Position numbers and translations under genes: made by a program
Notes under the pieces: generated by a model
What the model was told of the DNA's origin: nothing
Seen by the model: only the letters and a program-made list of their open reading frames with translations
Databases searched by the model: none
In this document: positions 40,499-53,115 of the stretch, in pieces
Layout of the letters: every line of letters begins with the position of its first letter
Numbering within the stretch: position 1 is the stretch's first letter
Source of the DNA: a virus
Virus record (IMG/VR): IMGVR_UViG_3300023174_000104
Coordinates: 32,689-96,688 of that record
DNA: 64,000 bases
Direction: 5' to 3' (one strand)

Positions 40499-40572
40499 GG
40501 GAGTGAAACTTTAAGGTGAAGTAACCGGCTTTTAACCGGTAAAATTCGGATCGTTCCCGAACACTCCTACCA
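40499..40572 (+). tRNA. tRNA-Lys(TTT)
   Basis: CCGG-CTTTTAA-CCGG anticodon arm, TTCGG/CCGAA T-stem, 7-bp acceptor with one G-T pair, encoded CCA. Confidence 0.9.
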
Positions 40573-40651
40573 TATAAAAACACATTACCGAGGACCGAAC
40601 TCTTTACTATGGGCTCCGACCATAAAGAGAGGTAGTGTGTTTCTATATGGT
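40569..40651 (+). repeat. Imperfect inverted repeat bridging tRNA-Lys and tRNA-Ser
   Basis: Arms of about 20 nt (40569-40589 and 40631-40651) pair with two mismatches. The left arm includes the tRNA-Lys CCA; the right arm ends 9 nt before tRNA-Ser. Arms share the AAACACA / TGTGTTT core with the repeat at 39476. Confidence 0.7.
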
Positions 40652-40660
40652 ATAATAAAA

Positions 40661-40752
40661 GGAAACGTGGCAGAGCCCGGTTTATTGCACCTGACTTGAA
40701 ATCAGACGGATTAGAAATAGTCCCGTGAGTTCGAATCTCACCGTTTCCACCA
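40661..40752 (+). tRNA. tRNA-Ser(TGA)
   Basis: Class II tRNA with long variable arm; GGAAACG/CGTTTCC acceptor, CTGA-CTTGAAA-TCAG anticodon arm, encoded CCA. Confidence 0.92.
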
Positions 40753-40754
40753 AT

Positions 40755-40831
40755 GGTGCTTGTCGTCAAGCGGTTAAGACCTCGGATTGTGATTCCGATA
40801 TGCGTGGGTTCAAATCCCATCAAGCACCCCA
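40755..40831 (+). tRNA. tRNA-His(GTG)
   Basis: CGGA-TTGTGAT-TCCG anticodon arm; the G-1:C73 pair typical of tRNA-His is encoded; CCA encoded. Confidence 0.92.
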
Positions 40832-40834
40832 AAC

Positions 40835-40910
40835 GGTTGAATAGCATAGCGGCCAATGCACCACCTTCATACGGTGTTTATCGTCGGTTCGAGTCCGACT
40901 TCAACTACCA
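40835..40910 (+). tRNA. tRNA-Met(CAT), elongator
   Basis: CACC-TTCATAC-GGTG anticodon arm gives CAT. The acceptor is fully paired (one G-T), unlike the initiator at 51410. Could in principle be a second Ile2, but the loop differs from the one at 45382. Confidence 0.8.
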
Positions 40911-40918
40911 ATCATTAT

Positions 40919-40992
40919 TCCCGGTTAGCTCAAAAGTAGAGCACACGACTGATAATCGTGCGACAGAGGAGCGTTACCTCTACTGGGAACCA
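40919..40992 (+). tRNA. tRNA-Ile(GAT)
   Basis: CACGA-CTGATAA-TCGTG anticodon arm; TCCCGGT/ACTGGGA acceptor; CCA encoded. T-loop sequence (AGCGTTA) is atypical. Confidence 0.85.
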
Positions 40993-41076
40993 AGTTGTGT
41001 TGCAACTAATTTCAGGGAGTGTACGTTAGCCTGAATTAAAATGAAAAAAATCGGCGCCATATTTTAGGAGACTCAC

Positions 41077-41166
41077 ATGAGTTGGAATCAATCATTAGAA
41101 AAACATAAACAAGAAATTGAAGCATGGACACATTTATGTAATGTGTACAAGGAGTCTCTTTATTAA
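41077..41166 (+). CDS. Tiny ORF between tRNAs (29 aa)
   Basis: MSWNQSLEKHKQEIEAWTHL..: helical and charged, behind a strong TTAGGAGACTCAC RBS, which is why it is listed. Nothing else supports it. Confidence 0.4.
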   Translation: MSWNQSLEKHKQEIEAWTHLCNVYKESLY

Positions 41167-41175
41167 AGATAAAAT

Positions 41176-41250
41176 ACCCTCTTTGCCAAGCGGTAAGGCC
41201 TCGGATTTTGATTCCGACATTCGGTGGTTCGAATCCATCAGGGGGTGCCA
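41176..41250 (+). tRNA. tRNA-Gln(TTG)
   Basis: CGGA-TTTTGAT-TCCG anticodon arm with Gln-typical GCCAAGCGGTAAGGC D-arm; discriminator G; CCA encoded. Confidence 0.93.
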
Positions 41251-41411
41251 GTTATGGGATAGACGATAGGTTTGAGTCCCTGTCAATCTAATCACAGTGG
41301 GGTTAACTGTGATGACACTATAGTATGATTGATAGGTGTATAAACTTGCCTATACGAGACAATCTAATGAGGCTTATTAACAATAAGATAGTTAGGCTCC
41401 CGCCTTTATAA
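41251..41411 (+). ncRNA. Structured intergenic spacer between tRNA-Gln and tRNA-Phe
   Basis: No ORF. It contains a TCACAGT/ACTGTGA hairpin and a possible T-arm remnant (GGTTTGAGTCC), suggesting a decayed tRNA or structured spacer. Confidence 0.3.
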
Positions 41412-41487
41412 ACCAAGATAGCTCATCAGGTAGAGCACTAGTTTGAAGCACTAGGTGTGGTTGGTTCAAGTCCAACTCTTGGTACCA
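41412..41487 (+). tRNA. tRNA-Phe(GAA)
   Basis: CTAGT-TTGAAGC-ACTAG anticodon arm, ACCAAGA/TCTTGGT acceptor, CCA encoded. Confidence 0.9.
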
Positions 41488-41489
41488 AT

Positions 41490-41564
41490 GGGTCCTTAGT
41501 TCAATGGATAGAATACGATGCTTCGAACTTCGGGATGTGGGTTCAATTCCTACAGGACCCTCCA
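41490..41564 (+). tRNA. tRNA-Arg(TCG)
   Basis: Anticodon loop CTTCGAA, GGGTCCT/AGGACCC acceptor, CCA encoded. One T-T mismatch in the anticodon stem. Confidence 0.85.
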
Positions 41565-41612
41565 GTACATGATTAAATACAATTAGTGACTAAAAGCGAA
41601 AAGGAGTAAATT

Positions 41613-42173
41613 ATGGCTGTTCTAGCACTAGATATCAGTGGAGTTCCCCGGCAGTGGATCTCAAATGATGACGCAATTACCTATCAAGCAAAAGATGCCA
41701 TCGCATGGAGTATGGGCAATATTGTGGCTAGATATCGTGGTGGTATACAAAATGACGGTACATTAAGTTACTTAGAAGCTAGTAGCATTATCGCTATCAA
41801 AGGTCATGGATTCAATCCATACAAACATTCATGTGTAGCACTAACTAATAAAACATTGTTTGGTCGTGATAGACATGTATGCGCTTATTGTGGAAATCAT
41901 TTTCCAAACTTTCATGTATTAAGTCGTGATCATATTCATCCAAAAAGTAAAGGTGGTGAAAACACCTGGATGAATGTGGTTACAGCATGTCGTGATTGCA
42001 ATAGTAAAAAAGGTCATAAGACATTGAAAGAAGCAAAGATGGAACTATTATATACTCCATATGTACCAAACCACTACGAAAATATGATATTACAACATAG
42101 AACAATTCTTGCCGATCAAATGGAATATTTGTTAGCAGGAGTTCCAAAACATAGCAGAATTTTATTATCATAG
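41613..42173 (+). CDS. HNH endonuclease (conserved phage type)
   Basis: The protein has 186 aa with CAYCGNHFPNFHVLSRDHIHPKSKGG...NVVTACRDCNSKKG, a complete treble-clef HNH with both CxxC pairs and the D-H catalytic dyad. It lacks the DNA-contact repeats of the homing types here and has a normal strong RBS (AAAAGGAGTAAATT), so it may be a resident nuclease rather than a recent insertion. Flanked by tRNAs on both sides. Confidence 0.88.
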   Translation: MAVLALDISGVPRQWISNDDAITYQAKDAIAWSMGNIVARYRGGIQNDGTLSYLEASSIIAIKGHGFNPYKHSCVALTNKTLFGRDRHVCAYCGNHFPNFHVLSRDHIHPKSKGGENTWMNVVTACRDCNSKKGHKTLKEAKMELLYTPYVPNHYENMILQHRTILADQMEYLLAGVPKHSRILLS

Positions 42174-42200
42174 TGTATAATACTGTTAAATAAACATATT

Positions 42201-42276
42201 GCCCCCTTAGCTCATCTGGTAGAGCAACTGATTTGTAATCAGTAGGTGGTCTGTTCGAGTCGGACAGGGGGCACCA
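42201..42276 (+). tRNA. tRNA-Thr(TGT)
   Basis: CTGA-TTTGTAA-TCAG anticodon arm, GCCCCC acceptor, CCA encoded. Confidence 0.92.
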
Positions 42277-42283
42277 AAATTAT

Positions 42284-42364
42284 TCCACGGGAGCCGCCGG
42301 GTGTGGCAGCAGACTGTTAATCTGTGCGAAAGCTAGCTAGGTTCGAGTCCTAGCCGTGGAGCCA
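42284..42364 (+). tRNA. tRNA-Asn(GTT)
   Basis: CAGA-CTGTTAA-TCTG anticodon arm, TCCACGG/CCGTGGA acceptor, discriminator G, CCA encoded. D-arm/D-loop is longer than usual. Confidence 0.88.
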
Positions 42365-42366
42365 AA

Positions 42367-42374
42367 CATAAATA
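42367..42374 (+). promoter_or_regulatory. Late promoter CATAAATA
   Basis: Two bases after the CCA of tRNA-Asn and five before the HNH pseudogene ATG. Confidence 0.7.
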
Positions 42375-42379
42375 ACTAT

Positions 42380-42998
42380 ATGTATGAATGTATAGAGTGT
42401 AATAAATTGTTTGCTAGTATTATGGCCTTAACCGGGCATAAACGAATGCATGGCCAATCTAATGGTAAATCTAAAAAAATAGTATGTTCTTGTTTGATAA
42501 CTCGTAAAGTAATGCCTTATCAAAATTTAGAACAATATCAAAAAACATTAATTGGATGCAAACAATGTAATAAAATATTTCATCCTACTACGGAAAGAAA
42601 AACTTTTTGTAGTCAATCATGTTTGTTCTGCAACATATAATAATAAAATTTACGTAAAAAGACAGAAAAAAGAAAAACCACCAAAAACACCTAGAGCTAA
42701 AAAAATATACTCAGAGGCAGAGATTAGAGCAAGAAATGTATCATCGGTGCAGGCATATAGACAACGAAAATATAGTGCTACCCCAATAGATGTTGACCGT
42801 AAACTAATACAAATCATTTACGAAAATTGTCCTGTAGGCTATGAAGTAGACCATATTATAGCAATTAGTGAAGGTGGTCCGCATCATCAAGACAATCTAC
42901 AATACCTTCCTGCTATAGTAAACAGGAAGAAAAACCGCTATCAAAATTATGATAAAGACTCAGTTTTGCGATGGCAAGATATTATTGTCAAAGGTTGA
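42380..42998 (+). pseudogene. Frameshifted HNH endonuclease
   Basis: Two overlapping frames read as one zinc-finger/HNH protein. The first has CIECNKLFASIMALTGHKRMH and CKQCNKIF...FCSQSC; the second continues CSATYNNK, then a basic linker and GYEVDHIIAISEGGPHHQDNLQYLP. The frames meet at a TGTTTGTT tandem duplication near 42621-42628; removing four bases restores SQSC-SATYNN. The simplest reading is an inactivated gene, though slippage or an assembly error cannot be excluded. The stop TGA lies inside the -35 of the next promoter. Confidence 0.8.
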
Positions 42999-43023
42999 CA
43001 ATAAATCAAATCTCTGCTACAAT
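42995..43023 (+). promoter_or_regulatory. Early promoter TTGACA-17-TACAAT
   Basis: TTGACAATAAAT-family promoter 21 nt before tRNA-Arg(TCT). Its -35 contains the HNH pseudogene stop. Confidence 0.88.
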
Positions 43024-43044
43024 AAAGGAAAGTTAGAAATTTAG

Positions 43045-43119
43045 CTGGCGTTAGTATAATGGATAATACAGTAGCCTTCTAAGCTATCAATAGAGGTTCG
43101 ATTCCTCTACGCCGGACCA
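43045..43119 (+). tRNA. tRNA-Arg(TCT)
   Basis: TAGC-CTTCTAA-GCTA anticodon arm, CTGGCGT/ACGCCGG acceptor, CCA encoded. The last 13 bases overlap the convergent J-domain gene. Confidence 0.9.
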
Positions 43120-43703
43120 TCAAAATTTTCTAGTAGTAATCGCCATTCATCATTACTAAAGTGATAATCTTCTAATACTTCTAACATTCTAGCAAAAACT
43201 ATTAAACCTCTTTTATGGTGAATTAATTCAGTATGTAGTCCTAATATTTTTTTATCAATTACAGACTTTAATACATTCTCACCTTCTTTTTTTAATTTAA
43301 TTTTTTTAGAAATAATGTTCATTTTATTTATTAGATTGTTACATTCTACAATGGCATTATTTGTTAGTTGTTGTAATGCACGAATTTCAATTCGCATTTT
43401 TAATATTAAATCATCAATCTCCGGATTGATATGTTGAACAAATTGTGAAATCATAATAGCTAGTCTAGCCATTACCTCACTATCAAGATTAATATCATCA
43501 TATTGATCGCCGGTACTATCATAGTGTTCACGTTTAATTGGATCACTTAATACTTCATATGCCAATTTCATTCGTTTAAACTTTTCTACATCTCCTCCCT
43601 TATCAGGATGATGTAATTGTGCTAAGATTCTGTATTTTTGTTTGATTTCTTCAGATGTGCAATTTTTTGGTAATTCTAAATCATCATATAGGGAGGTTGT
43701 CAT
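43107..43703 (-). CDS. J-domain (DnaJ-like) protein
   Basis: The protein has 198 aa from the ATG at 43703, chosen because a late box lies five nt upstream (the open frame extends to 43721). The N-terminal J-domain is SLYDDLELPKNCTSEEIKQKY..LAQLHHPDKGGD with the HPD triad at 32-34 and a Gly-Gly stretch. A C-terminal helical region of about 120 residues has no Cys-rich or substrate-binding DnaJ domain. It should stimulate host DnaK. Its 3' end is encoded inside tRNA-Arg. Confidence 0.88.
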   Translation of the reverse strand: MTTSLYDDLELPKNCTSEEIKQKYRILAQLHHPDKGGDVEKFKRMKLAYEVLSDPIKREHYDSTGDQYDDINLDSEVMARLAIMISQFVQHINPEIDDLILKMRIEIRALQQLTNNAIVECNNLINKMNIISKKIKLKKEGENVLKSVIDKKILGLHTELIHHKRGLIVFARMLEVLEDYHFSNDEWRLLLENFDGPA

Positions 43704-43708
43704 AACAA

Positions 43709-43716
43709 TATTTATC
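43709..43716 (-). promoter_or_regulatory. Late promoter GATAAATA (minus)
   Basis: Five nt upstream of the J-domain gene ATG. Confidence 0.75.
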
Positions 43717-43758
43717 ATCATGCATTTTATGTAGTATTAAGTACTACAATGATAAAAT

Positions 43759-43787
43759 TTGACAATAAATCCTCAATCTGCTATACT
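43759..43787 (+). promoter_or_regulatory. Early promoter TTGACA-17-TATACT
   Basis: First of two tandem promoters leading into the non-coding region before tRNA-Glu. Confidence 0.85.
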
Positions 43788-43839
43788 CTAGTTATAGATT
43801 GATTGAACAAGTTCTTGGGAAACAGAGAAACGAAAGAAT

Positions 43840-43868
43840 TTGACAATAAATGGTAGTTATGATACAAT
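43840..43868 (+). promoter_or_regulatory. Early promoter TTGACA-17-TACAAT
   Basis: Second tandem promoter, 53 nt after the first; consensus spacing and the ATAAATGG spacer start. Confidence 0.87.
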
Positions 43869-43907
43869 CATAGCATGAGTTGAGAAAAGTCATCGTACTA
43901 CTCAACA

Positions 43908-43920
43908 AAGTTCTTTAAAA
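43908..43920 (+). promoter_or_regulatory. boxA-like antitermination site
   Basis: AGTTCTTTAAAA resembles the rrn leader boxA (TGCTCTTTAACA) and lies about 40 nt after a promoter in a tRNA transcript. Inference only. Confidence 0.4.
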
Positions 43921-44304
43921 TTTAGAATTCATATAGCCCTGTTTAAGTTACAGGGACTATATGTAAACATATTAAGGGTTACCTGATCCGTTAGGTACTC
44001 TATGGAAGCATAACCAGTTGACGGACTGGCTTCGCATAGAGTACAAGAAGCGTACCGACAATAGCAATATTGTTTAACGTGACGGGCAGTTAGGCAGTAA
44101 TGACGAATGACATTGCATCAGTAGACGGTACTGATTATTTGTTTAATAGTTCCCATAGTGTGTTTTCATATAGTGTGTTATTAGTTTTGCTGATGTAAGC
44201 CATTGAGTAAACGTCAACTCTAAGTAACTATGTATATAAACGGTACGTCCAGCTGGCAATTCCGTTGAGCATAGCAAATAGTGCGTCAGCAAAACTAATA
44301 ACAT
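43921..44304 (+). ncRNA. Non-coding structured region before tRNA-Glu
   Basis: No ORF over about 380 nt. Hairpins are prominent: ATATAG(C)CCTGT/ACAGG..CTATAT at 43931-43962, and a 50-nt hairpin at 43995-44044 with three stacked stems (GTACTCTATG/CATAGAGTAC, GAAGC/GCTTC, CCAGT/ACTGG). The 18-bp inverted repeat at 44176-44303 follows. It is transcribed from two strong early promoters. Confidence 0.5.
44176..44303 (+). repeat. 18-bp perfect inverted repeat abutting tRNA-Glu
   Basis: Arms 44176-44193 and 44286-44303 are perfect complements (TGTTATTAG...). The right arm ends one base before tRNA-Glu, the same arrangement as at 39476. Confidence 0.85.
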
Positions 44305-44379
44305 GTCGCATTAGACTTCTGGTGAGGTCATCACCCTTTCAAGGTGACTAGACGGGATCGTAACCCGTATGCGACTCCA
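44305..44379 (+). tRNA. tRNA-Glu(TTC)
   Basis: TCACC-CTTTCAA-GGTGA anticodon arm, GTCGCAT/ATGCGAC acceptor, CCA encoded. Confidence 0.92.
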
Positions 44380-44857
44380 ATTTTTTGTAGTTAGGTGAGA
44401 GGCGTGGGCAATTGTTGGAGATCAACTAACAGCTACATTTTTAATTTCGCATAGTTTAATACTAGAACAAAATGACACTAGGGTACCTTAGTGTAGATAT
44501 CGGCGGAGTACTGTTCCGATTGCGTCAAGAATCCCGTTACTATTTTCGTTAAAATAGCGTTTGATTAATGATAGAGATCCGGTGGCAGAAAACCGTTAGC
44601 GTGAGGATTAAAAATACCCTTGCAGGCTCTGATAGGCAGAATCTCACTGCACACAGACTTTGAATAAATGAGATGGACAGAGTAACCGCTCAATTAAGGG
44701 CTTGTGTGGAAACAAGTAGCTTATACTAATACATAACATAGATGTATACAACAACCCTAATATTGTACACATCTATGTTATACTAATTTTTGAGTTACAT
44801 CGCCCTGATACTTCTCTCAGTAATGAGACACTAGGTCTTGCAACCGTAACTCATCTT
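44380..44857 (+). ncRNA. Structured non-coding region between tRNA-Glu and tRNA-Tyr
   Basis: No ORF in 478 nt. It has small hairpins, a motif at 44676-44721 shared with 51350-51396, an inverted repeat at 44733-44781 (ATAACATAGATGT arms), and a TGAGTTAC/GTAACTCA pair before tRNA-Tyr. Possible small RNA or tRNA-processing spacer. Confidence 0.45.
44676..44721 (+). repeat. Copy 1 of a shared RNA motif
   Basis: GACAGAGTA, then CTCA, GGGCT, a CTTGT/ACAAG hairpin around GTGG, then AGTAGCT. Copy 2 at 51350-51396 has a compensatory CTCA/TGAG hairpin. Confidence 0.6.
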
Positions 44858-44943
44858 GGAGATGTAGGAAAATTGGTAACCCCAGGAGACTGTAAATCTT
44901 CCGCCTTATGGCACTACTGGTTCAACTCCAGTTGTCTCCACCA
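44858..44943 (+). tRNA. tRNA-Tyr(GTA)
   Basis: GGAGA-CTGTAAA-TCTTC anticodon arm, long class II variable arm, CCA encoded. Confidence 0.92.
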
Positions 44944-44950
44944 AGAATAT

Positions 44951-45027
44951 GCACCGTTAGATCAGTTGGTTAGATCGCATGCCTGTCACGCATGAGGCCA
45001 GGGGTTCAAGTCCCCTACGGTGCGCCA
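44951..45027 (+). tRNA. tRNA-Asp(GTC)
   Basis: ATGC-CTGTCAC-GCAT anticodon arm, GCACCGT/ACGGTGC acceptor, discriminator G, CCA encoded. Confidence 0.93.
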
Positions 45028-45033
45028 AAATAT

Positions 45034-45062
45034 TTGACTACAATCATTGTATGATATATAAT
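45034..45062 (+). promoter_or_regulatory. Early promoter TTGACT-17-TATAAT
   Basis: Located 13 nt before tRNA-Leu(TAA). Confidence 0.8.
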
Positions 45063-45075
45063 AGTAACAAGATTT

Positions 45076-45373
45076 GCGACTGTGGTGAAATAGGTAGACA
45101 CAAGAGACTTGAGAGTAAAATTTGAGTGCCTTGAGGGAAATCTCAGGAGTAGAACCCGTCAAATTCGGTGAAGGCTGTAAAATGCTAATACCGAGCCAAG
45201 CTTAGTGAGAAATCACTTTGAAGGTGTAGAGACTAGACGGCGGGCATCTAAGGTAGTAATACTATGATGAAGGTATAGTCCAGACCATCAAACTGTATAG
45301 GTAGTGAAAACTATAGTGGTAAGAAAATCTCTCGCTTAACAGCATCCCGGTTCGATTCCGGGCAGTCGCACCA
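45076..45373 (+). tRNA. tRNA-Leu(TAA) interrupted by a group I intron
   Basis: Exons 45076-45110 and 45324-45373 assemble a normal class II tRNA-Leu: GCGACTG/CAGTCGC acceptor, GTG..CAC D-stem, AGAGA-CTTAAAA-TCTCT anticodon arm, CCCGG/CCGGG T-stem, CCA. The intron separates U34 from A35, the site used by the cyanobacterial and plastid tRNA-Leu(UAA) group I intron. Anticodon inferred from the joined exons. Confidence 0.85.
45111..45323 (+). other. Group I intron in tRNA-Leu(UAA)
   Basis: 213 nt, starting after U and ending in G as group I introns do. It shows a CTTGAG/CTCAG stem near the 5' end, AGTGA-GAAA-TCACT tetraloop hairpin, the catalytic-core segment AGAGACTAGACGG (45227-45239), and TATAGTCCAGACC (45274-45286). 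GACTA and TAGTC form P7. No ORF inside. Confidence 0.83.
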
Positions 45374-45381
45374 AAGAATGA

Positions 45382-45460
45382 TGCCTCTATAGCACAATTG
45401 GTTAGTTGCAAGCGACTCATAATCGCTAGGTTCCTGGTTCGAGTCCAGGTGGAGGCACCA
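45382..45460 (+). tRNA. tRNA-Ile2(CAT), lysidine type
   Basis: AGCGA-CTCATAA-TCGCT anticodon arm and following segment match E. coli tRNA-Ile2 rather than elongator Met. It would need host TilS to read AUA. Confidence 0.75.
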
Positions 45461-45465
45461 ATTAA

Positions 45466-45553
45466 GGATAGTTGCCCGAGTGGTTAAGGGAGCGGTTTGC
45501 TAAACCGTCGCTGTGAAAACGGCGCATAGGTTCGAATCCTATACTATCCGCCA
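45466..45553 (+). tRNA. tRNA-Ser(GCT)
   Basis: CGGT-TTGCTAA-ACCG anticodon arm, long variable arm, GGATAGT/ACTATCC acceptor, CCA encoded. 3' end overlaps the convergent small gene by 10 bp. Confidence 0.92.
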
Positions 45554-45735
45554 GATTTCTTTTTTGTTCGGTCTATGATTTCATGGCGAAACATAGGATT
45601 TTCAATCATCATCCGAGCAAGCATACCAGTTAGATAACCCCGTTCATATAATAATTGTTCGTGGCTATCTTTGTAATTATGGTTGTTTTGACGCAACAAC
45701 TTTTCAACAATATCAATACAGTCTTGGATATCCAT
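45544..45735 (-). CDS. Small hypothetical protein (63 aa)
   Basis: MDIQDCIDIVEKLLRQ..., ending IIDRTKKKSGG; two amphipathic helices (LLYERGYLTGMLARMMIENP). A late box lies four nt before the start. Convergent with, and overlapping, tRNA-Ser. No known family. Confidence 0.6.
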   Translation of the reverse strand: MDIQDCIDIVEKLLRQNNHNYKDSHEQLLYERGYLTGMLARMMIENPMFRHEIIDRTKKKSGG

Positions 45736-45739
45736 ACTG

Positions 45740-45747
45740 TATTTATA
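45740..45747 (-). promoter_or_regulatory. Late promoter TATAAATA (minus)
   Basis: Four nt before the ATG at 45735. Confidence 0.65.
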
Positions 45748-46033
45748 AAAGAACGTGCCGGGTGTCGCTGGCTACTCTGACCCAGAGGACGAGAAGTGGC
45801 GTGACAGCTACGGGTGGTTCTGAAACGTAATAGTTTCACACAGAGGACATGGAAACATGTGCGTGTATGTGCGGTCTAACCTAACCGGCGCTAGCAATGC
45901 GATAACGGTCCCTGTCGGGAAGCGGGTGGAAGGTATGTGTGATGCATAGAATCGCTAACCTTAGTTGAGTTAGATTCCGGATTAATCTATGTTGATGTAC
46001 TATAATTACCGCCGGGGGATGCCAGAGCAATAT
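45748..46033 (+). ncRNA. GC-richer non-coding spacer before tRNA-Cys
   Basis: No ORF on either strand. Noticeably richer in G and C than its surroundings, with several short self-complementary stretches (GTTTCA-type and CTAACCTTAG). Structured RNA is plausible but unproven. Confidence 0.35.
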
Positions 46034-46110
46034 GTAGGTGTGTCGCTGAATGGTCAGGCCGCGGATTGCAAATCCGTTTTATGCAGGTTCGATCCCTGTC
46101 ACCTACTCCA
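46034..46110 (+). tRNA. tRNA-Cys(GCA)
   Basis: CGGAT-TGCA-ATCCG region anticodon arm, GTAGGTG/CACCTAC acceptor, CCA encoded. Confidence 0.9.
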
Positions 46111-46121
46111 AAGATATATTT

Positions 46122-46376
46122 TTATTCGGCAGCAGGCGCCTTAGGCCATTTCTTTAATGGGCATTCCTGATTTGGCATCCAAGTTTTTACCTTCATAAAA
46201 CAGCCGCACATTTTACAAGTGTCAGTAGGTTTGTAAAGTTTTTCACAACTGTGACACGTATTATAACGGTATTCTTGAACTTCTATGCTTACTTTGTTTG
46301 AAAGCATACTTGCAGCCGCATTTTCGGCTGCATCACGAACTTGTTCCATTTTTTCTTTGAGTTTGTTTATAATCAT
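46122..46376 (-). CDS. Small zinc-ribbon protein
   Basis: The protein has 84 aa. An N-terminal helix (KEKMEQVRDAAENAAASML) is followed by CHSCEKLYKPTDTCKMCGCFMKVKTWMPNQECPLKKW, a Cys4-type zinc ribbon common in T4-like marine phages. The start overlaps the PP-loop gene stop (ATGA), making it the third gene of the protease operon; a late box also lies nine nt upstream. Function unknown; nucleic-acid or protein binding likely. Confidence 0.75.
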   Translation of the reverse strand: MIINKLKEKMEQVRDAAENAAASMLSNKVSIEVQEYRYNTCHSCEKLYKPTDTCKMCGCFMKVKTWMPNQECPLKKWPKAPAAE

Positions 46377-47275
46377 AGTAAAATATATTTATACTTAAAA
46401 AATTTAGCTTCATATTTATTTCTGTACAACAAATCAAAATTTCTATTACTCAATTGACTTTCTAATCTTGAGATTTTATCTTGAGCAGTGGGCTGTCTAG
46501 GAGGATTAGTGTCATAAAGATTTTTCAATTTTTCAAACCCATTAAGTTTAGATTTGATTTCTGTGTATCCAGTAAGTTTATCAAGTTGTCCTATCACAGG
46601 AAATCCATAATATTGAAAAGCCTTTACTTTTTCTCCGTAACTTCCAGGTGTATGAAATTTTTGTAGTTCCGGTAACATCACGTCAAAAGCGTATGCTACT
46701 TCACGTGTTTCTAGAAAAAAGAATGGTACTATGTTTTTATTAGATTTGATGCCGTAGTGATATAGGCTCCAATTGTTTCTATCCGGAATTCCTAGATTCC
46801 CATGATTTTTTTGATACATAATATATTGACCAGCAAATATAACAGTACCGGTCTCAGTCATGTCTGCCATTTTCATAAATGTAGTGACTTGTGGACTACC
46901 GCAATAATATTCATTTGCATAATAATCATGTTCATTTTCTAAAAAAGAAATTACATCTAGATCATGGTAATTAATGGTTAAATCATGTTGTGCTGAGAAT
47001 TCTCTAAGAGTGCATAAATCATGCTCATTTAATGTCTGATTATAAACTGCTGAAAAAGTCTCATAAGGGACTCCTGACTTATGCCATGCATATAACATAG
47101 CCTGACTATCAACCCCACCGCTTAAATATAATGTATATGGTGCTGGATAGTTTTTTGTTATGTATTCTATTGTATGAAACGCAGCCTCAAGAGGAGGTAG
47201 TTTTTTATTATCGTTATCTCTAAATTTAAAATAATAATCATCTCCTACTTTATTAGGATTAGCCCATTTTAGCAT
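46373..47275 (-). CDS. PP-loop ATP pyrophosphatase (asparagine-synthetase-like)
   Basis: The protein has 300 aa from the ATG at 47275, which has a TAGGA RBS and begins after the protease stop; the frame could extend to 47305. The PP-loop motif is YLSGGVDSQAMLYAW near residue 50, followed by the Rossmann-like pattern of N-type ATP-PPases (FSAVYNQTLNEHDLCTLREFSAQHDL, GSPQVTTFMKMADM). No glutaminase domain is present. Such domains adenylate a carboxyl or carbonyl for amidation or thiolation; the substrate here is unknown. It lies between a subtilisin and a zinc ribbon. Confidence 0.8.
   Translation of the reverse strand: MLKWANPNKVGDDYYFKFRDNDNKKLPPLEAAFHTIEYITKNYPAPYTLYLSGGVDSQAMLYAWHKSGVPYETFSAVYNQTLNEHDLCTLREFSAQHDLTINYHDLDVISFLENEHDYYANEYYCGSPQVTTFMKMADMTETGTVIFAGQYIMYQKNHGNLGIPDRNNWSLYHYGIKSNKNIVPFFFLETREVAYAFDVMLPELQKFHTPGSYGEKVKAFQYYGFPVIGQLDKLTGYTEIKSKLNGFEKLKNLYDTNPPRQPTAQDKISRLESQLSNRNFDLLYRNKYEAKFFKYKYILL
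46386..46393 (-). promoter_or_regulatory. Possible late promoter TATAAATA (minus)
   Basis: Lies in the last codons of the PP-loop gene, nine nt before the zinc-ribbon ATG; may be internal promoter or coincidence. Confidence 0.4.
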
Positions 47276-47286
47276 ATTTGATCCTA

Positions 47287-48963
47287 TCAAGCACCACAGT
47301 AGCAAGCGTTAGAATCTTTACCCGTGCCATCACTACAACAGTATATATTGCAAAGATTACCACAGACTTGAAAACCACCATTTTGTATACAAGGTTGGGG
47401 TAGACTTTGACAGTTAAATAATAATGTTATATGTAGAAGATCATCTGAAGGCACTGTTTCGGGCTGAAAATTTTGAGGTAATACGTAAATAATAAGTGTT
47501 ATGATTTCTGTTGAATCATCTGTGTTTGTTCTCATAAAACTAGATGTATATATTTTATAAGCCTCTCCTTCTGAAGGGCCCTGTGATTCAACCGGATCCC
47601 CGTATACTCTACCATCTGGTACAATCATAAAGTTTTCTGGTAAAGGAACTATCCATTCTATAGATTTGGTAAATATAGGTTCATATACTCGTAAACGAAT
47701 TTTTTCATTGATATCAGTATTTCCTACTCTAAAAGACATTCTGTGTTCATCTGATGATTGAACTAAGGGATAACTATCTCTATCTGTCATAGTTGCAATC
47801 ATATTAACACTATTTTGATATTTAGGGTCAGTTAAATCTAAAAGATCGGGCTTACTGAAAAGTACAGTGTTAGAACCAATAACCGCTGTGCTAAAAAAAT
47901 CATTTTGAAAAACTTCATGTCGTCTGCCATTTTCATATGAGCGTGACGCTAAGTTACATGCTAAAATTGCACTTCCGGTGGCTGCCGCAATAGATGTTCC
48001 GGCAACATAACCATATGTACCGTTTAGTCCAGCCGCCCATATTTCTTCGCCTGGTGCCCAACCATCTAATTCACCGTGATTAGTTTGTCCACCTGTTACT
48101 GATATTGTACTGCCACCGGTATAGTTGCTAAAGTCGCATGGTTTTAAATCTTTGTTATATGCACCGACAGTTATTACATCTATCATACCTGCAGGAGTTA
48201 CATCTTCTATAGATGTACCATTATTTCCTGCGGCCGCAATGATGAACACACCTTCATCTTCTAACACACGTAGTTTATTTTCTACCCATGCATTTTTTGG
48301 AATAGACCAACTTGCATTTAATACACTATATGTACCGTCAACATGGTCGTTTATGATAGCCTCTAATGCATCTAAGAATTCATGTTCGGTGGTAGCATGA
48401 TTAGGGTCAAATATTTTTACAATTTTTAGTTTTGCTTCAGTAATACCGCAGGTTTTGCCAACAATTACGCTAGCAATCGCAGTACCGTGACCTTTGTTAT
48501 CACTAAAATCACCGGGGGTCACACTATAGATATTTGTAATATTAGCGTCAATAAACTCAGGGTGTGAGGCTTCTATACCACTATCCATGACATACACACT
48601 TATAGATTGACCTAATCTTTTAATAATTGCGGTAGGTGACGTAAACTCCGGTTGATTACGAGAATAGTTTTTCCACCAGTCTTTGGTATCGTTAACATCA
48701 ATATTAATTGATTCTTTATTAGGATCCCTATGTGTTCCAAAATAAGGATTAAGAGGAATTACATCTAGTGGACGTATAGCTAAGTGATTTTCTTCAGTAA
48801 CACGATCAATTATGGCTGATTCTGGAGGCATTTGATCAGCTTCAACTAAAAAGATTTTATCAAAATTATCCCACTCCTTTAAAACTGTGCATCCGTGCTG
48901 TTGTAGGTATGCACTTATATCAGCATCTAATGTATCTGCTTTAAAATCAATTAAAAATTTCAT
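47287..48963 (-). CDS. Subtilisin-like (S8) protease with Cys-rich tail
   Basis: The protein has 558 aa. The N-terminal 75 residues resemble an I9-type propeptide. Triad: Asp127 (VMDSGI), His159 (KGHGTAIAS), Ser324 (AGTSIAAATG), with oxyanion Asn247 (AAAGNNG). A beta-rich domain follows (about 380-515). The last 42 residues hold eight cysteines (FNCQ, CIQNGGFQVCGNLCNIYCC, ACYC), a disulfide-knot-like tail that suggests an extracellular or virion location. There is no signal peptide. Late promoter with a 28-nt leader and AGGGG RBS. First gene of an operon with a PP-loop enzyme and a zinc ribbon. Confidence 0.92.
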   Translation of the reverse strand: MKFLIDFKADTLDADISAYLQQHGCTVLKEWDNFDKIFLVEADQMPPESAIIDRVTEENHLAIRPLDVIPLNPYFGTHRDPNKESINIDVNDTKDWWKNYSRNQPEFTSPTAIIKRLGQSISVYVMDSGIEASHPEFIDANITNIYSVTPGDFSDNKGHGTAIASVIVGKTCGITEAKLKIVKIFDPNHATTEHEFLDALEAIINDHVDGTYSVLNASWSIPKNAWVENKLRVLEDEGVFIIAAAGNNGTSIEDVTPAGMIDVITVGAYNKDLKPCDFSNYTGGSTISVTGGQTNHGELDGWAPGEEIWAAGLNGTYGYVAGTSIAAATGSAILACNLASRSYENGRRHEVFQNDFFSTAVIGSNTVLFSKPDLLDLTDPKYQNSVNMIATMTDRDSYPLVQSSDEHRMSFRVGNTDINEKIRLRVYEPIFTKSIEWIVPLPENFMIVPDGRVYGDPVESQGPSEGEAYKIYTSSFMRTNTDDSTEIITLIIYVLPQNFQPETVPSDDLLHITLLFNCQSLPQPCIQNGGFQVCGNLCNIYCCSDGTGKDSNACYCGA

Positions 48964-48991
48964 ATTTCGGAACCCCTGTTAGTTATAGCAG

Positions 48992-48999
48992 TATTTATC
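48992..48999 (-). promoter_or_regulatory. Late promoter GATAAATA (minus)
   Basis: Drives the protease operon; leader of 28 nt includes an SD. Confidence 0.72.
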
Positions 49000-49057
49000 T
49001 TTTTTATCATGGTTCATTAAATTTAATGTTTTTGGTCAATACAATACTCAATTATTG

Positions 49058-49087
49058 TTGACATATTGCTATATTTGCTGTTATACT
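49058..49087 (+). promoter_or_regulatory. Early promoter TTGACA-18-TATACT
   Basis: Upstream of the 2OG oxygenase gene at 49142. Confidence 0.75.
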
Positions 49088-49141
49088 AAAGACTTCGTAA
49101 AAACCAAGTTTTTACAAAAAACAATTTAAATTAAAATAAAC

Positions 49142-49780
49142 ATGAAACAAATAGATGCATTAGCGGTTCCTTTCTACGAATTCCGGTGTGATGAAAAATT
49201 GATTGATGAAATCCTACCCTTAATTAAAAATCTTGATTACAAAAAGAATACAGATTCTGCTGAACTCTCAACTCAGTATTTTTATCATAAAGAACTGTTT
49301 AAATGGTTTGATGAATGTTTGGAAGAAGTACGGCAACTATATTTTGATTCAACTTTAAAAATGGTAATTACTACCTGCTGGTCAACTAAAACTATGCCTT
49401 TTAAAAGGCATATAACTCATAATCATCAACAAACGCTAATAGGTGGTATTTTATACCTTGATGACTTTCAAAGCGGAGAGACTGTTTTTACTACACCTAA
49501 TCCATGGTTGAGATATCAAAATGAACATATTATGAATGTTTCTACCCAACAGTTGAGTCAATCAAAACTTACAACAAAGATTGTACCTGAGAAAGGTAAA
49601 CTTGTTTTATATCCTCCACATATATTTCATGGTACTATGCCAAACAAAGATAAAAAAATAAGACATACATTGGCATTTGATGCATTCTTTTCTGGTAAAA
49701 TTTATGAAAATTCTAATTGGCCGTATGTTGAAATAAATTCTAGTAGCCTGCAAGAAATAGTTGAAAATAAAGATTCTTAA
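49142..49780 (+). CDS. 2-oxoglutarate/Fe(II)-dependent oxygenase
   Basis: The protein has 212 aa. RHITHNHQQTLIGGILYLDDFQSGETVF carries the first His ligand region, followed by KGKLVLYPPHIFHGTMPN (distal His) and IRHTLAFDAFF (2OG-binding Arg). The layout fits the 2OG-FeII_Oxy_5-type oxygenases frequent in T4-like phages. The first metal carboxylate is not obvious. Substrate unknown; protein or nucleotide hydroxylation are possibilities. Confidence 0.82.
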   Translation: MKQIDALAVPFYEFRCDEKLIDEILPLIKNLDYKKNTDSAELSTQYFYHKELFKWFDECLEEVRQLYFDSTLKMVITTCWSTKTMPFKRHITHNHQQTLIGGILYLDDFQSGETVFTTPNPWLRYQNEHIMNVSTQQLSQSKLTTKIVPEKGKLVLYPPHIFHGTMPNKDKKIRHTLAFDAFFSGKIYENSNWPYVEINSSSLQEIVENKDS

Positions 49781-49798
49781 TTAAGCTTCACCAAATTA

Positions 49799-49963
49799 TT
49801 ATAGTGATTGAATGAACTGTTTTGCAGGTTCAACACTACTGAAAAACTTCATTGTCATTGTGAAGTTTACAAGATCATGTACCATAATATAAAAGGATTC
49901 GTCTTCCATCATTGAAAGATGGATATGTAATCCGGTTTTTGTAACAGTATCGTATATGTACAT
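49799..49963 (-). CDS. Small hypothetical protein (54 aa)
   Basis: MYIYDTVTKTGLHIHLSMMEDE...MKFFSSVEPAKQFIQSL. Supported by a CATAAATA late box exactly five nt upstream, the same geometry as nine other genes, and by fitting neatly between its neighbours. The composition (short strands, a final helix) looks like a folded domain. No family recognised. Confidence 0.65.
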   Translation of the reverse strand: MYIYDTVTKTGLHIHLSMMEDESFYIMVHDLVNFTMTMKFFSSVEPAKQFIQSL

Positions 49964-49968
49964 AAATA

Positions 49969-49976
49969 TATTTATG
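49969..49976 (-). promoter_or_regulatory. Late promoter CATAAATA (minus), touching tRNA-Gly
   Basis: Five nt before the ATG at 49963. The outer base of the box is the first base pair of the tRNA-Gly gene. Confidence 0.68.
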
Positions 49977-50050
49977 CGGGATTAACTCAGGGGTAGAGTG
50001 TCAGCCTTCCAAGCTGTTCGTCAGCGGTTCGAATCCGCTATCCCGCTCCA
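49976..50050 (+). tRNA. tRNA-Gly(TCC)
   Basis: CAGC-CTTCCAA-GCTG anticodon arm, GCGGGAT/ATCCCGC acceptor, CCA encoded. Confidence 0.93.
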
Positions 50051-50052
50051 AC

Positions 50053-50682
50053 TTATTTTAAAATGATTCTATCACTATATATGAATCTATCATTAAACAT
50101 AGAAGCACAAATATGTTTATATTCCTCATAATTTGAAATTATGTCTTTATACTCAATATTGGATGCTTGTATCCCCTGCAGGCTTACATTAAAGTAATCA
50201 AGTAAATTTTCATACCAATAGTATTGATAAGGTATATTATTCTGCTCTAAATAGATTTGTATTTTGCAAAAGTTAGATATATCATTTATGATAGATTCTA
50301 CAGTTGACATACTAAGTTCATATTGTAATTTTTTTATTTTATCAAATGCGTTGTTATTTCTATTATGCCATATCCCACTGCTTATACTAACTTGTAAACT
50401 ACAGCATTGGTCTAAATAGTTTTTACGATTGATTAAATAGATTTTATCAAATGATTCAAGCCTAAGTTTTGAAATATCTTCTTCTAATTTAATATTGTGA
50501 CCTAATATTTTCAAAATAAATTGCTCACTTCTATGAATTAAATTAGTATTAAATTCTATAGAATTTGTACTATTGTATGTATAAAATTCATATAAGCATT
50601 TTAATTTAGGATATTGCCTACGTATAATTTCAACTAATAGAGTTGATCTGGTTCTAGCAGATCCTATCACAAGAATTTTCAT
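50053..50682 (-). CDS. Sulfotransferase-like protein
   Basis: The protein has 209 aa. ILVIGSARTRSTLLVEIIRR at the N-terminus is the 5' PAPS-binding P-loop of sulfotransferases; DKIYLINRKNYLDQCCS fits the 3'-phosphate region. Similar small sulfotransferase-like genes occur in marine T4-like phages. Acceptor unknown. Its start overlaps the HNH stop upstream, forming a two-gene unit. Confidence 0.72.
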   Translation of the reverse strand: MKILVIGSARTRSTLLVEIIRRQYPKLKCLYEFYTYNSTNSIEFNTNLIHRSEQFILKILGHNIKLEEDISKLRLESFDKIYLINRKNYLDQCCSLQVSISSGIWHNRNNNAFDKIKKLQYELSMSTVESIINDISNFCKIQIYLEQNNIPYQYYWYENLLDYFNVSLQGIQASNIEYKDIISNYEEYKHICASMFNDRFIYSDRIILK

Positions 50683-50957
50683 ATTGATCCAAGTCTACTT
50701 AAAATGTTCATTGCTCTGGTTCTTAATCTTTCAGTAAATTCTGATTCAGTTAATACACCTTTAGCAAGATTACATTTTCTACAAGTTACTTGAAGATTGT
50801 TGTATGTAGTTTGTCCGCCCTTACTTTCAGGAATAACATGATCCATGTGTATTTCTTTATCGGACAAGTCTTCATCACAATATACACAATGCAAACCATC
50901 TCTATCCATAACTCTACGGCGTAGGTTAAGAGGAATGTGTTGTTTCTTTTGTAACAT
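50679..50957 (-). CDS. HNH endonuclease (compact)
   Basis: The protein has 92 aa: RRVMDRDGLHCVYCDEDL...IHMDHVIPESKGGQTTYNNLQVTCRKCNLAKG, a complete minimal HNH with two CxxC pairs. Late-type box ACTAAATA five nt upstream. The gene end overlaps the sulfotransferase start. Confidence 0.9.
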   Translation of the reverse strand: MLQKKQHIPLNLRRRVMDRDGLHCVYCDEDLSDKEIHMDHVIPESKGGQTTYNNLQVTCRKCNLAKGVLTESEFTERLRTRAMNILSRLGSI

Positions 50958-50962
50958 AAGTT

Positions 50963-50970
50963 TATTTAGT
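50963..50970 (-). promoter_or_regulatory. Late-type promoter ACTAAATA (minus)
   Basis: Five nt before the HNH ATG at 50957. Confidence 0.6.
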
Positions 50971-50983
50971 TACCCAAATATAG

Positions 50984-51012
50984 TAGACAGATAAATAGTT
51001 TTCTGTTAAACT
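50984..51012 (+). promoter_or_regulatory. Early promoter TAGACA-17-TAAACT, with GATAAATA late box at 50990-50997
   Basis: Early and late elements overlap upstream of the tRNA-Leu(TAG) cluster. Confidence 0.5.
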
Positions 51013-51017
51013 ATAGT

Positions 51018-51029
51018 TTGTTCTTTAAA
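51018..51029 (+). promoter_or_regulatory. boxA-like site before tRNA-Leu(TAG)
   Basis: TTGTTCTTTAAA directly precedes the tRNA; the same GTTCTTTAAA core as at 43908. Confidence 0.4.
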
Positions 51030-51114
51030 GCGGACGTGGCGTAATTGGCAGCCGCACCAGATTTAGGTTCTGGCGTCGTAAGATGTGTGAGTTCGAGTCT
51101 CACCGTCCGCACCA
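51030..51114 (+). tRNA. tRNA-Leu(TAG)
   Basis: CCAGA-TTTAGGT-TCTGG anticodon arm, long variable arm, GCGGACG/CGTCCGC acceptor, CCA encoded. Confidence 0.93.
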
Positions 51115-51119
51115 AATTG

Positions 51120-51193
51120 GGGGGATTGATGTAATGGGAGCCTGGGACCTTTGCAAGGTCTTCGTAACAGTTCGATTCTGTTATCCTCCACCA
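51120..51193 (+). tRNA. tRNA-Ala(TGC)
   Basis: GGACC-TTTGCAA-GGTCT anticodon arm, GGGGGAT/ATCCTCC acceptor with one G-T pair, CCA encoded. Confidence 0.85.
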
Positions 51194-51409
51194 AGAAACC
51201 CGTTTACACTTTTACGTTATAAAGTGGGTGGGGCAGTCACCAAAGAAAGTGCTAGGTATGTAGTGCATTGACCATCCGTACTCTGTGGTGGAGTGGCGGG
51301 AACGCATTAGGTGAGGAACGCTAACCTTTTCCAAAAGTAAAAATACGTAGACAGAGTAGTTCCACTCAGTTTAGGGCTCATGTGGTGTGAGTAGCTAGAC
51401 ACTAATTAC
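51194..51409 (+). ncRNA. Structured non-coding spacer before tRNA-fMet
   Basis: No ORF. A TACTCTGT/ACAGAGTA pair (51279-51358) encloses the region, with GGAGTGG/CCACTC beside it. Includes copy 2 of the motif found at 44676. Confidence 0.45.
51350..51396 (+). repeat. Copy 2 of the shared RNA motif
   Basis: GACAGAGTA, CTCA, GGGCT, a CTCA/TGAG hairpin around GTGG, AGTAGCT; hairpin covaries with copy 1 at 44676. Confidence 0.6.
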
Positions 51410-51484
51410 CGCGGGGTGGAGAAGTAGTAACTCATCAGGCTCATAACCTGAAGATCGGCGGTGCGAATCCGTCCCCCGCATCCA
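51410..51484 (+). tRNA. Initiator tRNA-fMet(CAT)
   Basis: Begins CGCGGGG with the unpaired C1:A72 hallmark of bacterial initiator tRNA, TCAGG-CTCATAA-CCTGA anticodon arm and initiator-like D-arm. Only two of the three conserved G-C pairs of the anticodon stem are kept (29:41 is A-T). Confidence 0.88.
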
Positions 51485-51498
51485 AATAGGAATATTAT

Positions 51499-51648
51499 AT
51501 GCCAATGTATGAAACAACAGTTCGCACACCAGAAGGTGATAAGAAAGATAAAGTCTATGCACCTAATGTACAAGAAGCTAAAAAGCTTTTTGAACAACGC
51601 CATGGTCCTAGAAATGTTCCATACATACCGCATGTAATACCAAGTTAA
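51499..51648 (+). CDS. Small hypothetical protein (49 aa)
   Basis: MPMYETTVRTPEGDKKDKVYAPN..EAKKLFEQRHG...; AGGAATATT RBS; sits neatly between tRNA-fMet and tRNA-Pro. The YxTTVRTPxG opening recalls small single-domain beta-beta-alpha phage proteins. Confidence 0.65.
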   Translation: MPMYETTVRTPEGDKKDKVYAPNVQEAKKLFEQRHGPRNVPYIPHVIPS

Positions 51649-51654
51649 TTTTAC

Positions 51655-51731
51655 CTCGGTGTAGTATAGCCTGGTTAGTACTCGTGGTTTGGGACCATGA
51701 AACGGGAGTTCGAATCTCTCCACCGAGACCA
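51655..51731 (+). tRNA. tRNA-Pro(TGG)
   Basis: CGTGG-TTTGGGA-CCATG anticodon arm, CTCGGTG/CACCGAG acceptor, CCA encoded. Confidence 0.92.
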
Positions 51732-51752
51732 AGTTTTTAAAAAGGAAATAGT

Positions 51753-51917
51753 ATGACATGTAGAGGATATGATGCGAAAGCAGTGAAAGTTTCAAAGACA
51801 GTTAAACGTGCCGCGGCATTGATTAGTGATGCACATAAACGTGGAAGTTTTATTCGTAGTTATGTTGAGATTGAAAGAAGCAATTCTCGTACCGCATCTC
51901 GTAAGGATAGCAAATAA
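51753..51917 (+). CDS. Small basic conserved phage protein (54 aa)
   Basis: MTCRGYDAKAVKVSKTVKRAAALISDAHKRGSFIRSY...; strongly basic helical protein, AAAAAGGAAATA RBS. A nucleic-acid-binding role is plausible from charge only. Confidence 0.7.
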   Translation: MTCRGYDAKAVKVSKTVKRAAALISDAHKRGSFIRSYVEIERSNSRTASRKDSK

Positions 51918-51944
51918 CTAGTATAGAGATTAATTTCATATAAT

Positions 51945-52643
51945 ATGAAATACTTATTGGGTCCTTCTAATCTACAAACTGAGTTTGAATTTGAAATTTT
52001 TAAAAAATTTGGAAAATTGACTATTGTTGATAATATCATTTTTCCTAAAATTGATAAAATAGGATTATTCCTGTCAGGTGGATTAGATTCAGCGGCATTA
52101 TTATGTTTAATTCTTACCGAGTTAAAAAACATCAATAAGTTAAATGAACTCCCCGTAGTATGCTTTACTGTTGCTAAAGAAAATATACCAACACATTATG
52201 CTACGGATGTTTTAAACTATGCCCAAAATAAGTTTAATGTTAGTCTCACTCATATAAACGACATACCTAATACTCCTCAAGCTGATAAGATAGGGATATT
52301 GGGTAGTACTACAATGAAGTTTGCACGTGAGTATTCTTCAAACATGATAATATATCTAGGTCAAAATAAAATGGCTCCTAGTGATATTAGACCATTCAGT
52401 CAACAATTAAATGTTGATTATGGAAATAAAAAAACTGTTAATAAGATTACATCACCTTTCTTATTTCTGCATAAACCACAGATAGTTGATTTAATATATC
52501 AATTGGGATGTGAAGAAGTAATACCTTTAACAAAATCATGTTCAGCACAACCAATTGAAAATTGCGGAATATGTTATGCATGTGCTGAAAGAAAATGGGG
52601 TTTTGATGCATTAGGAAAAATTGATACTGGAATTGTTAGTTAA
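51945..52643 (+). CDS. QueC-like PP-loop enzyme (7-cyano-7-deazaguanine synthase-like)
   Basis: The protein has 232 aa. PP-loop LFLSGGLDSAALLCLIL near residue 45, and the C-terminal zinc site SCSAQPIENCGICYACAERKWGF of QueC-type enzymes (four Cys). QueC turns CDG into preQ0 for queuosine or for phage 7-deazaguanine DNA modification. The central region diverges from bacterial QueC and no folE, queD, queE, gat or dpd partners lie in this window, so the substrate is uncertain. Convergent 3' overlap of 8 bp with the next gene. Confidence 0.75.
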   Translation: MKYLLGPSNLQTEFEFEIFKKFGKLTIVDNIIFPKIDKIGLFLSGGLDSAALLCLILTELKNINKLNELPVVCFTVAKENIPTHYATDVLNYAQNKFNVSLTHINDIPNTPQADKIGILGSTTMKFAREYSSNMIIYLGQNKMAPSDIRPFSQQLNVDYGNKKTVNKITSPFLFLHKPQIVDLIYQLGCEEVIPLTKSCSAQPIENCGICYACAERKWGFDALGKIDTGIVS

Positions 52644-53079: not shown

Positions 53080-53087
53080 AACTTTGT

Positions 53088-53095
53088 TATTTATG
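53088..53095 (-). promoter_or_regulatory. Late promoter CATAAATA (minus)
   Basis: Eight nt before the GNAT start at 53079. Confidence 0.6.
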
Positions 53096-53107
53096 AAACC
53101 CGACGTG

Positions 53108-53115
53108 TATAAATA
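53108..53115 (+). promoter_or_regulatory. Late promoter TATAAATA (plus)
   Basis: Divergent from the minus-strand box; would serve the gene at 53198. Confidence 0.5.

What the first reader, a model, noticed from the sequence alone, without database searches (positions are those of the whole stretch)
45076..45373. tRNA-Leu(UAA) group I intron at the U34/A35 site in a phage
The exons join into a perfect tRNA-Leu(UAA), and the 213-nt insert has group I core motifs, P7 pairing and a GAAA tetraloop. The insertion site is the same as that of the ancient cyanobacterial/plastid tRNA-Leu(UAA) intron. The phage copy may be a vector or relic in the history of this intron.
Basis: partly seen in the sequence, partly recalled or inferred. 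Interest (0 to 1): 0.8.

Follow-up and report, generated by a model that had tools for sequence, protein, structure and literature searches.

The report
Mobile self-splicing intron in phage tRNA-Leu
A virus of bacteria carries, inside a leucine tRNA gene, a ribozyme intron at the same spot as the famous cyanobacterial and chloroplast intron; many other phages and bacteria carry relatives, some with a DNA-cutting gene, so it looks like a family that still moves around rather than a fossil.

Summary
Window 45076-45373 is a tRNA-Leu(UAA) gene split between U34 and A35 by a complete 213-nt group I intron (45111-45323; Rfam RF00028, 57.5 bits). Across 42 relatives the helices P2-P9, including P7, covary strongly. 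The contig carries phage portal and baseplate genes.

It is not a one-off. The same-site intron occurs in about 100 viral contigs, in Agrobacterium phage Atu_ph07 and in huge phages, and in chromosomes of SAR11, other alphaproteobacteria, Bacilli, Treponema, Chloroflexota and cyanobacteria.

It is mobile. Two phages with the same tRNA array have the empty site. Near-copies (96%) sit in phages whose tRNA exons match only 84-85% and whose flanks are unrelated. Relatives carry HNH endonuclease genes in the P1 or P6 loop; this HNH family is otherwise mostly free-standing in phage tRNA arrays.

The link to the ancient intron is only partly supported. Classical cyanobacterial introns form a separate clade. 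A second cyanobacterial type, in the same trpA-linked tRNA gene, groups with three viral contigs and other bacteria. Phage vectoring is plausible but not shown; a relic is unlikely. A 2014 review stated that all phage introns known then lay in protein-coding genes.

The parts
45076..45110 (+). tRNA-Leu(UAA) 5' exon, ends ...GACUU at U34
   Evidence: ARAGORN with introns; exact junction
45111..45323 (+). group I intron, 213 nt, no ORF, ends in the terminal G
   Evidence: Rfam RF00028 57.5 bits; alignment and covariation
45324..45373 (+). tRNA-Leu(UAA) 3' exon with A35A36, variable arm, T arm and encoded CCA
   Evidence: ARAGORN; sequence printed
45124..45127 (+). internal guide sequence GAGU; pairs with exon ACUU, G.U wobble at the 5' splice site (P1)
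   Evidence: sequence; GAG invariant in 42 introns
45121..45123 (+). UUU that can pair with the first AAA of the 3' exon (P10), inferred
   Evidence: sequence
45130..45147 (+). P2 hairpin
   Evidence: covariation in all 7 pairs (coordinates)
45155..45160 (+). P3 5' strand CCCGUC (pairs with 45239-45244)
   Evidence: all 6 pairs covary, 99.6% paired
45165..45194 (+). P4 (45165-45170/45189-45194) and P5 (45174-45175/45184-45185)
45195..45225 (+). P6 (45195-45197/45223-45225) and P6a; this is the loop where some relatives carry an HNH gene
45231..45235 (+). P7 5' strand GACUA (guanosine-binding helix), pairs with 45276-45280 UAGUC
   Evidence: 100% paired, two pairs covary
45239..45244 (+). P3 3' strand GGCGGG
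45245..45269 (+). P8 hairpin CAUC/GAUG
   Evidence: 100% paired, 3 of 4 pairs covary
45276..45280 (+). P7 3' strand UAGUC
45284..45320 (+). P9 region with the GAAA-tetraloop hairpin 45301-45314 (loop 45306-45309)
40499..53780 (+). tRNA array: 24 tRNAs found by ARAGORN plus the split tRNA-Leu(UAA), which is the only tRNA-Leu(UAA) found in the 96.7-kb record
41613..42173 (+). free-standing HNH endonuclease (HNH_5) in the array, not of the intron-HEG family
   Evidence: Pfam; no blastp hit to intron HEGs
42552..42998 (+). second, weaker free-standing HNH-like gene in the array
   Evidence: Pfam HNH, just below its cut-off; no blastp hit to intron HEGs

Best explanation
It is a complete, ORF-less group I ribozyme intron in the only tRNA-Leu(UAA) gene found in this phage record. 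After transcription the exon ACUU pairs with the guide GAGU, external guanosine bound in P7 attacks after U34, the freed U34 attacks after the terminal G, and the exons join to a normal tRNA-Leu(UAA) (mechanism inferred from homology; not assayed). At the DNA level it belongs to a mobile family found at this site. HNH homing endonucleases, borne inside some family members (P1 or P6 loop) and related to free-standing HNH enzymes of phage tRNA arrays, would cut intronless tRNA-Leu genes, and recombination would copy the intron in (cutting inferred; presence/absence and horizontal movement shown). The window copy either lost its endonuclease gene or relies on one acting in trans. Phages and bacterial chromosomes share one pool of these introns.
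For: Covariance-model hit and exact tRNA reconstruction. Pairing supported by covariation in all ten helices tested. Phage context: portal, baseplate wedge, tail lysozyme and SbcCD in the same record. Empty sites: L283 and L249 have the same order Arg-Glu-Tyr-Asp-Leu(UAA)-Met-Ser-Cys without the intron, aligning straight across the junction at 79-82%. Movement: introns of L007 and L072 are 96% identical to the window's while tRNA exons are 84-85% and flanks share almost nothing. HNH ORFs in most of the 37 long introns, 27 in one family, in P1-loop, P6-loop and antisense positions; P6 ORFs end at the conserved core. Nine of eleven inspected database homologues of this HNH lie in or abut phage tRNA genes. 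True phages by terminase include HEG-bearing carriers.
Against: No splicing or cleavage assay. The window copy has no ORF, and its own two array HNH genes are not of the intron-HEG family, so its source of endonuclease is unknown. Most carriers are metagenomic contigs. The record shows no PHROG terminase, although it is a fragment with other virion genes.
Confidence: 0.87

Rival explanations
1. The intron came in passively: phages captured whole host tRNA-Leu(UAA) genes that already held the intron, and it is inherited with the gene.
For: SAR11 chromosome L185 and pelagiphage contig L023 match in intron (92.7%) and exons (95.3%) alike. A SAR11 phage is known to carry its own tRNA-Leu and to integrate at tRNA-Leu (PMC6811365).
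Against: For the window lineage, intron identity (96%) far exceeds exon identity (84-85%) in L007 and L072, flanks are unrelated, and the same tRNA array exists without the intron.
Confidence: 0.2
2. It is a vector or relic directly tied to the ancient cyanobacterial/plastid intron.
For: Same site and homologous core. Six cyanobacterial introns, in the same trpA-linked tRNA gene that elsewhere holds the classical type, group with viral contigs L047, L095 and L115 and with other bacteria (99/92). One cyanobacterial clade is rejected (p-AU 0.0015).
Against: Classical cyanobacterial introns form one clade apart (100/100), and the window copy sits in a phage-only set. Phage matches to the second cyanobacterial type are only about 70%. 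Deep nodes are weak.
Confidence: 0.2
3. Degenerate remnant that no longer splices; the tRNA gene is dead.
For: No ORF; no splicing data.
Against: All core helices intact and under covariation; exons form a full cloverleaf with CCA; it is the only tRNA-Leu(UAA) found in the record.
Confidence: 0.05
4. Binning or assembly artefact: a bacterial tRNA gene mistaken for phage.
For: Metagenomic contig without a detectable terminase.
Against: 25 tRNAs in a phage-type array with virion genes in the record; independent contigs have the same array; isolated phage Atu_ph07 has the same kind of split gene.
Confidence: 0.02

Closest known systems
[quoted passage not shown] Kuhsel 1990, Xu 1990)
   Same: Same gene, same U34/A35 site, alignable core, GAG guide, terminal G.
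   Different: Separate clade; different P9 stem sequence; carried by phages; family members with HNH genes. None is known to me in the classical type.
Alphaproteobacterial tRNA introns (tRNA-Arg(CCU) type and the tRNA-Leu(UAA) introns found here)
   Same: Same small tRNA-intron architecture; Leu copies at the same site, several with a GAGTGCC guide region like the window's.
   Different: Chromosomal; form their own clade with tRNA-Arg introns (95/99).
Phage group I introns in protein genes (T4 td/nrd, Twort, Bastille; here the Pelagibacter phage HTVC120P capsid gene)
   Same: Group I ribozymes in phages, often with HNH or GIY-YIG endonucleases; the HTVC120P stretch is 75% identical to the window intron over 167 nt.
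   Different: Those interrupt protein genes; Hausner 2014 (PMC3984707) states that all phage introns seen to that date did so despite many phage tRNA genes.
Cyanobacterial tRNA-fMet intron with an anticodon-region endonuclease (Bonocora & Shub 2001; title from the reference list)
   Same: tRNA-gene group I intron with its own homing endonuclease.
   Different: Other tRNA, host-borne; here the endonucleases are HNH proteins at tRNA-Leu(UAA).
Free-standing HNH endonucleases of phage tRNA arrays (phrog_10822 relatives: S-CRM01, Michonne, Dorin, Smoothie)
   Same: Same protein family as 27 of the intron HEGs.
   Different: Free-standing between intronless tRNA genes.

Membership tests
Group I intron | Covariance-model match above curated cut-off | tested here: met
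   RF00028 57.5 bits vs 50
Group I intron | P3-P8 core with P7 pseudoknot supported by covariation | tested here: met
Group I intron | U.G at the 5' splice site and terminal G | tested here: met
Group I intron | Guanosine-initiated self-splicing | not testable with these tools
   needs RNA
Subgroup IC3 | Match to a subgroup-specific model | not tested
   Only the general model is in Rfam; assignment inferred from alignment with cyanobacterial tRNA-Leu introns
tRNA-Leu(UAA) U34/A35 intron family | Insertion between U34 and A35 with intact exons | tested here: met
Classical cyanobacterial (Anabaena-type) clade | Groups inside the supported clade | tested here: not met
   44 classical introns 100/100; window elsewhere
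Mobile (homing) group I intron | Intron/empty-site polymorphism and horizontal spread uncoupled from the host gene | tested here: met
Mobile (homing) group I intron | Endonuclease encoded in this copy | tested here: not met
   213-nt copy without ORF; present in relatives
Mobile (homing) group I intron | Endonuclease cuts the empty site | not testable with these tools
   needs a cleavage assay

The most novel reading that the evidence does not exclude
Phage tRNA arrays are a standing reservoir of actively homing tRNA-Leu(UAA) introns, armed by tRNA-array HNH endonucleases, which have repeatedly seeded chromosomal tRNA-Leu(UAA) genes across bacterial phyla, including one of the two cyanobacterial types and perhaps, in deep time, the ancestor of the cyanobacterial/plastid intron.
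Probability: 0.3. Interest if true: 0.88.

Novelty: new variant of a known kind. Interest (0 to 1): 0.75.

Why it matters
The tRNA-Leu(UAA) intron is a textbook case of an ancient intron that passed into plastids, yet its patchy and polyphyletic spread in cyanobacteria has had no carrier or mobility enzyme. A widespread phage family at exactly this site, with homing-endonuclease genes in several members, supplies candidates for both and makes the question testable with a short DNA cleavage assay. It also contradicts the 2014 review statement that phage introns sit only in protein genes despite many phage tRNA genes (PMC3984707), and suggests why they were missed: default tRNA finding skips the split gene, and Rfam's cut-off misses the copies in Atu_ph07 and the huge phages.

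Tried and rejected
Megablast of 13 kb of the window and tblastn of one window protein against phage records found no relative, so the host was not identified. The HNH gene touching tRNA-Leu in cyanophage S-CRM01 looked like an intron HEG but the tRNA is intact and there is no group I hit. The window's own array HNH genes were tested as the intron's trans endonuclease: no sequence relation to the intron HEGs. SAR11-type viral contigs were suspected to be host fragments; they encode T7-like replication and head genes. A PDB profile search with the HEG alignment found nothing convincing. My first hand-drawn P7 and P9 pairing was one column off and was corrected. Automatic removal of HEG inserts failed, so trees use only introns under 340 nt. 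The tree with other tRNA introns joined long branches and gives no trustworthy root. Two older papers by Rudi and colleagues are not held.

Full report
Observation. The window is bases 32,689-96,688 of a 96,688-bp linear IMG/VR record. cmscan against all Rfam places one group I intron at 45101-45300 (57.5 bits, cut-off 50), and a search of the whole record with RF00028 finds this one only. Plain ARAGORN lists 24 tRNAs and skips this gene; with introns allowed it returns tRNA-Leu(UAA) 45076-45373 with a 213-nt intron in the anticodon loop. The junctions are GACUU|GAGAG and GGUAAG|AAAAUC, so the intron is 45111-45323. The rest of the record encodes baseplate wedge, tail lysozyme, portal, endolysin and SbcCD proteins, so it is a phage, though no terminase was detected. 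No other tRNA-Leu(UAA) was found in the record.

Structure. Aligning 42 introns from viral contigs and bacteria gives 50-odd invariant columns. RNAalifold recovers most of the group I helices without help. A 47-pair structure with P7 as a pseudoknot has 96.9% standard pairs, 33 pairs with double changes and a covariation score of 0.590 against 0.180 in shuffles and at most 0.112 when slid. In the window: guide GAGU 45124-45127, P3 45155-45160/45239-45244, P7 45231-45235/45276-45280, P8 45245-45248/45266-45269 and a GAAA-capped hairpin 45301-45314. Splicing itself is inferred.

Distribution. The same pattern over 84,980 bacterial and archaeal species genomes gave 107 hits in all, mostly cyanobacteria, then Bacilli and scattered phyla. 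These are lower bounds, because alphaproteobacterial genomes hold further tRNA-Leu introns with a different 3' stem. Named carriers are Agrobacterium phage Atu_ph07, where the record annotates no tRNA at that place, and huge phages LR756501 and LR756511. Terminase supports about a dozen carriers as phages, among them endonuclease-bearing ones. Pelagiphage-type contigs carry T7-like genes and one an integrase. Chromosomal neighbours show that SAR11, Bacilli, Treponema, Chloroflexota and cyanobacterial copies are host genes.

Mobility. A spliced-exon pattern found at least 120 intronless relatives. L283 and L249 have the window's tRNA order exactly and align straight across the junction at 79-82% identity. 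Conversely, L007 and L072 have introns 96% identical to the window's while their tRNA exons are 84-85% identical and their flanks unrelated. So the intron has moved between phages, separately from the tRNA gene.

Endonucleases. Of 37 introns over 400 nt, most encode an HNH protein; 27 form one family and three another. PHROGs calls the main family HNH endonuclease (phrog_10822). The gene sits in the P1 loop in some, in the P6 loop in others with its stop at the conserved core, and antisense in two, which points to repeated acquisition. Free-standing members are widespread in phages. Of eleven loci opened, nine lie in or against tRNA genes: S-CRM01, Michonne, LR745208, LCK69, Atu_ph07, Dorin, ECML-1, avDM4, Smoothie; Dulem virus 42 and DSL-LC03 do not. 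This fits the known route in which a free-standing endonuclease enters an intron (reviewed in PMC3984707). The window intron has no ORF; its two array HNH genes are of other types.

Relation to the ancient intron. In a maximum-likelihood tree of 119 introns, 44 classical cyanobacterial introns form one clade (100/100). Six others (Myxacorys, Phormidesmis, Phormidium tanganyikae and two more lineages) fall in a second clade (99/92) with viral contigs L047, L095 and L115 and Chloracidobacterium, Chloroflexota and Treponema. L095 has a phage portal. Both cyanobacterial types sit in a tRNA gene near trpA, so one chromosomal gene has received two intron types. Cyanobacterial monophyly is rejected (p-AU 0.0015), and so is phage monophyly (0.001). 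The window intron lies in a phage-only set of eight (98/91). Only 202 columns are available, several branches are long, and adding other tRNA introns leaves deep nodes weak, so direction of transfer and root are open. T7-like cyanophages use the first half of cyanobacterial tRNA-Leu as attachment site (PMC8776855), a possible point of contact.

Novelty. [quoted passage not shown] My searches of the open-access library found no later report of a phage tRNA group I intron, but subscription papers and preprints were not searched. I rate it a new variant of a known kind.

Noticed in passing
window 202-984, 2086-3078 (-), 29781-30566: Three further homing-endonuclease genes (phrog_655 / phrog_314); the last sits exactly between the two ribonucleotide reductase subunit genes.
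   Followed up: no
L361, L363, L366-L369, L374-L378: About 11 of 289 sampled alphaproteobacterial genomes carry tRNA-Leu(UAA) introns at the same site, most grouping with tRNA-Arg(CCU) introns of the class.
   Followed up: partly
L157, L185 (SAR11 single cells) and L013, L023, L106, L108: SAR11 chromosomal tRNA-Leu(UAA) intron shared with T7-like pelagiphages (L185 vs L023: intron 92.7%, exons 95.3%), suggesting host-phage exchange of the whole gene.
   Followed up: partly
L004 1464-1655: Pelagibacter phage HTVC120P: two 'capsid protein' CDS flank a gap 75% identical to the window intron; probably an unannotated group I intron in the capsid gene.
   Followed up: no
L006 1053-2131: crAss-like Kolpuevirus: dnaB helicase split in two around a GIY endonuclease, with part of the gap similar to this intron.
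   Followed up: no
L133: A 'Tatlockia' MAG carries a classical cyanobacterial tRNA-Leu intron with cyanobacterial-type exons; probably contamination.
   Followed up: no
L122, L068: Viral contigs with possible introns in other tRNAs (Thr, Ser) beside the tRNA-Leu(UAA) one; ARAGORN calls only.
   Followed up: no
L381 941-1332: Dulem virus 42: sub-threshold match to permuted tmRNA (37.4 bits, cut-off 47) next to the HNH gene.
   Followed up: no
L383 1954-2444: 485-kb phage LR745208 has five consecutive tRNA-Leu genes with different anticodons abutting the HNH gene.
   Followed up: no
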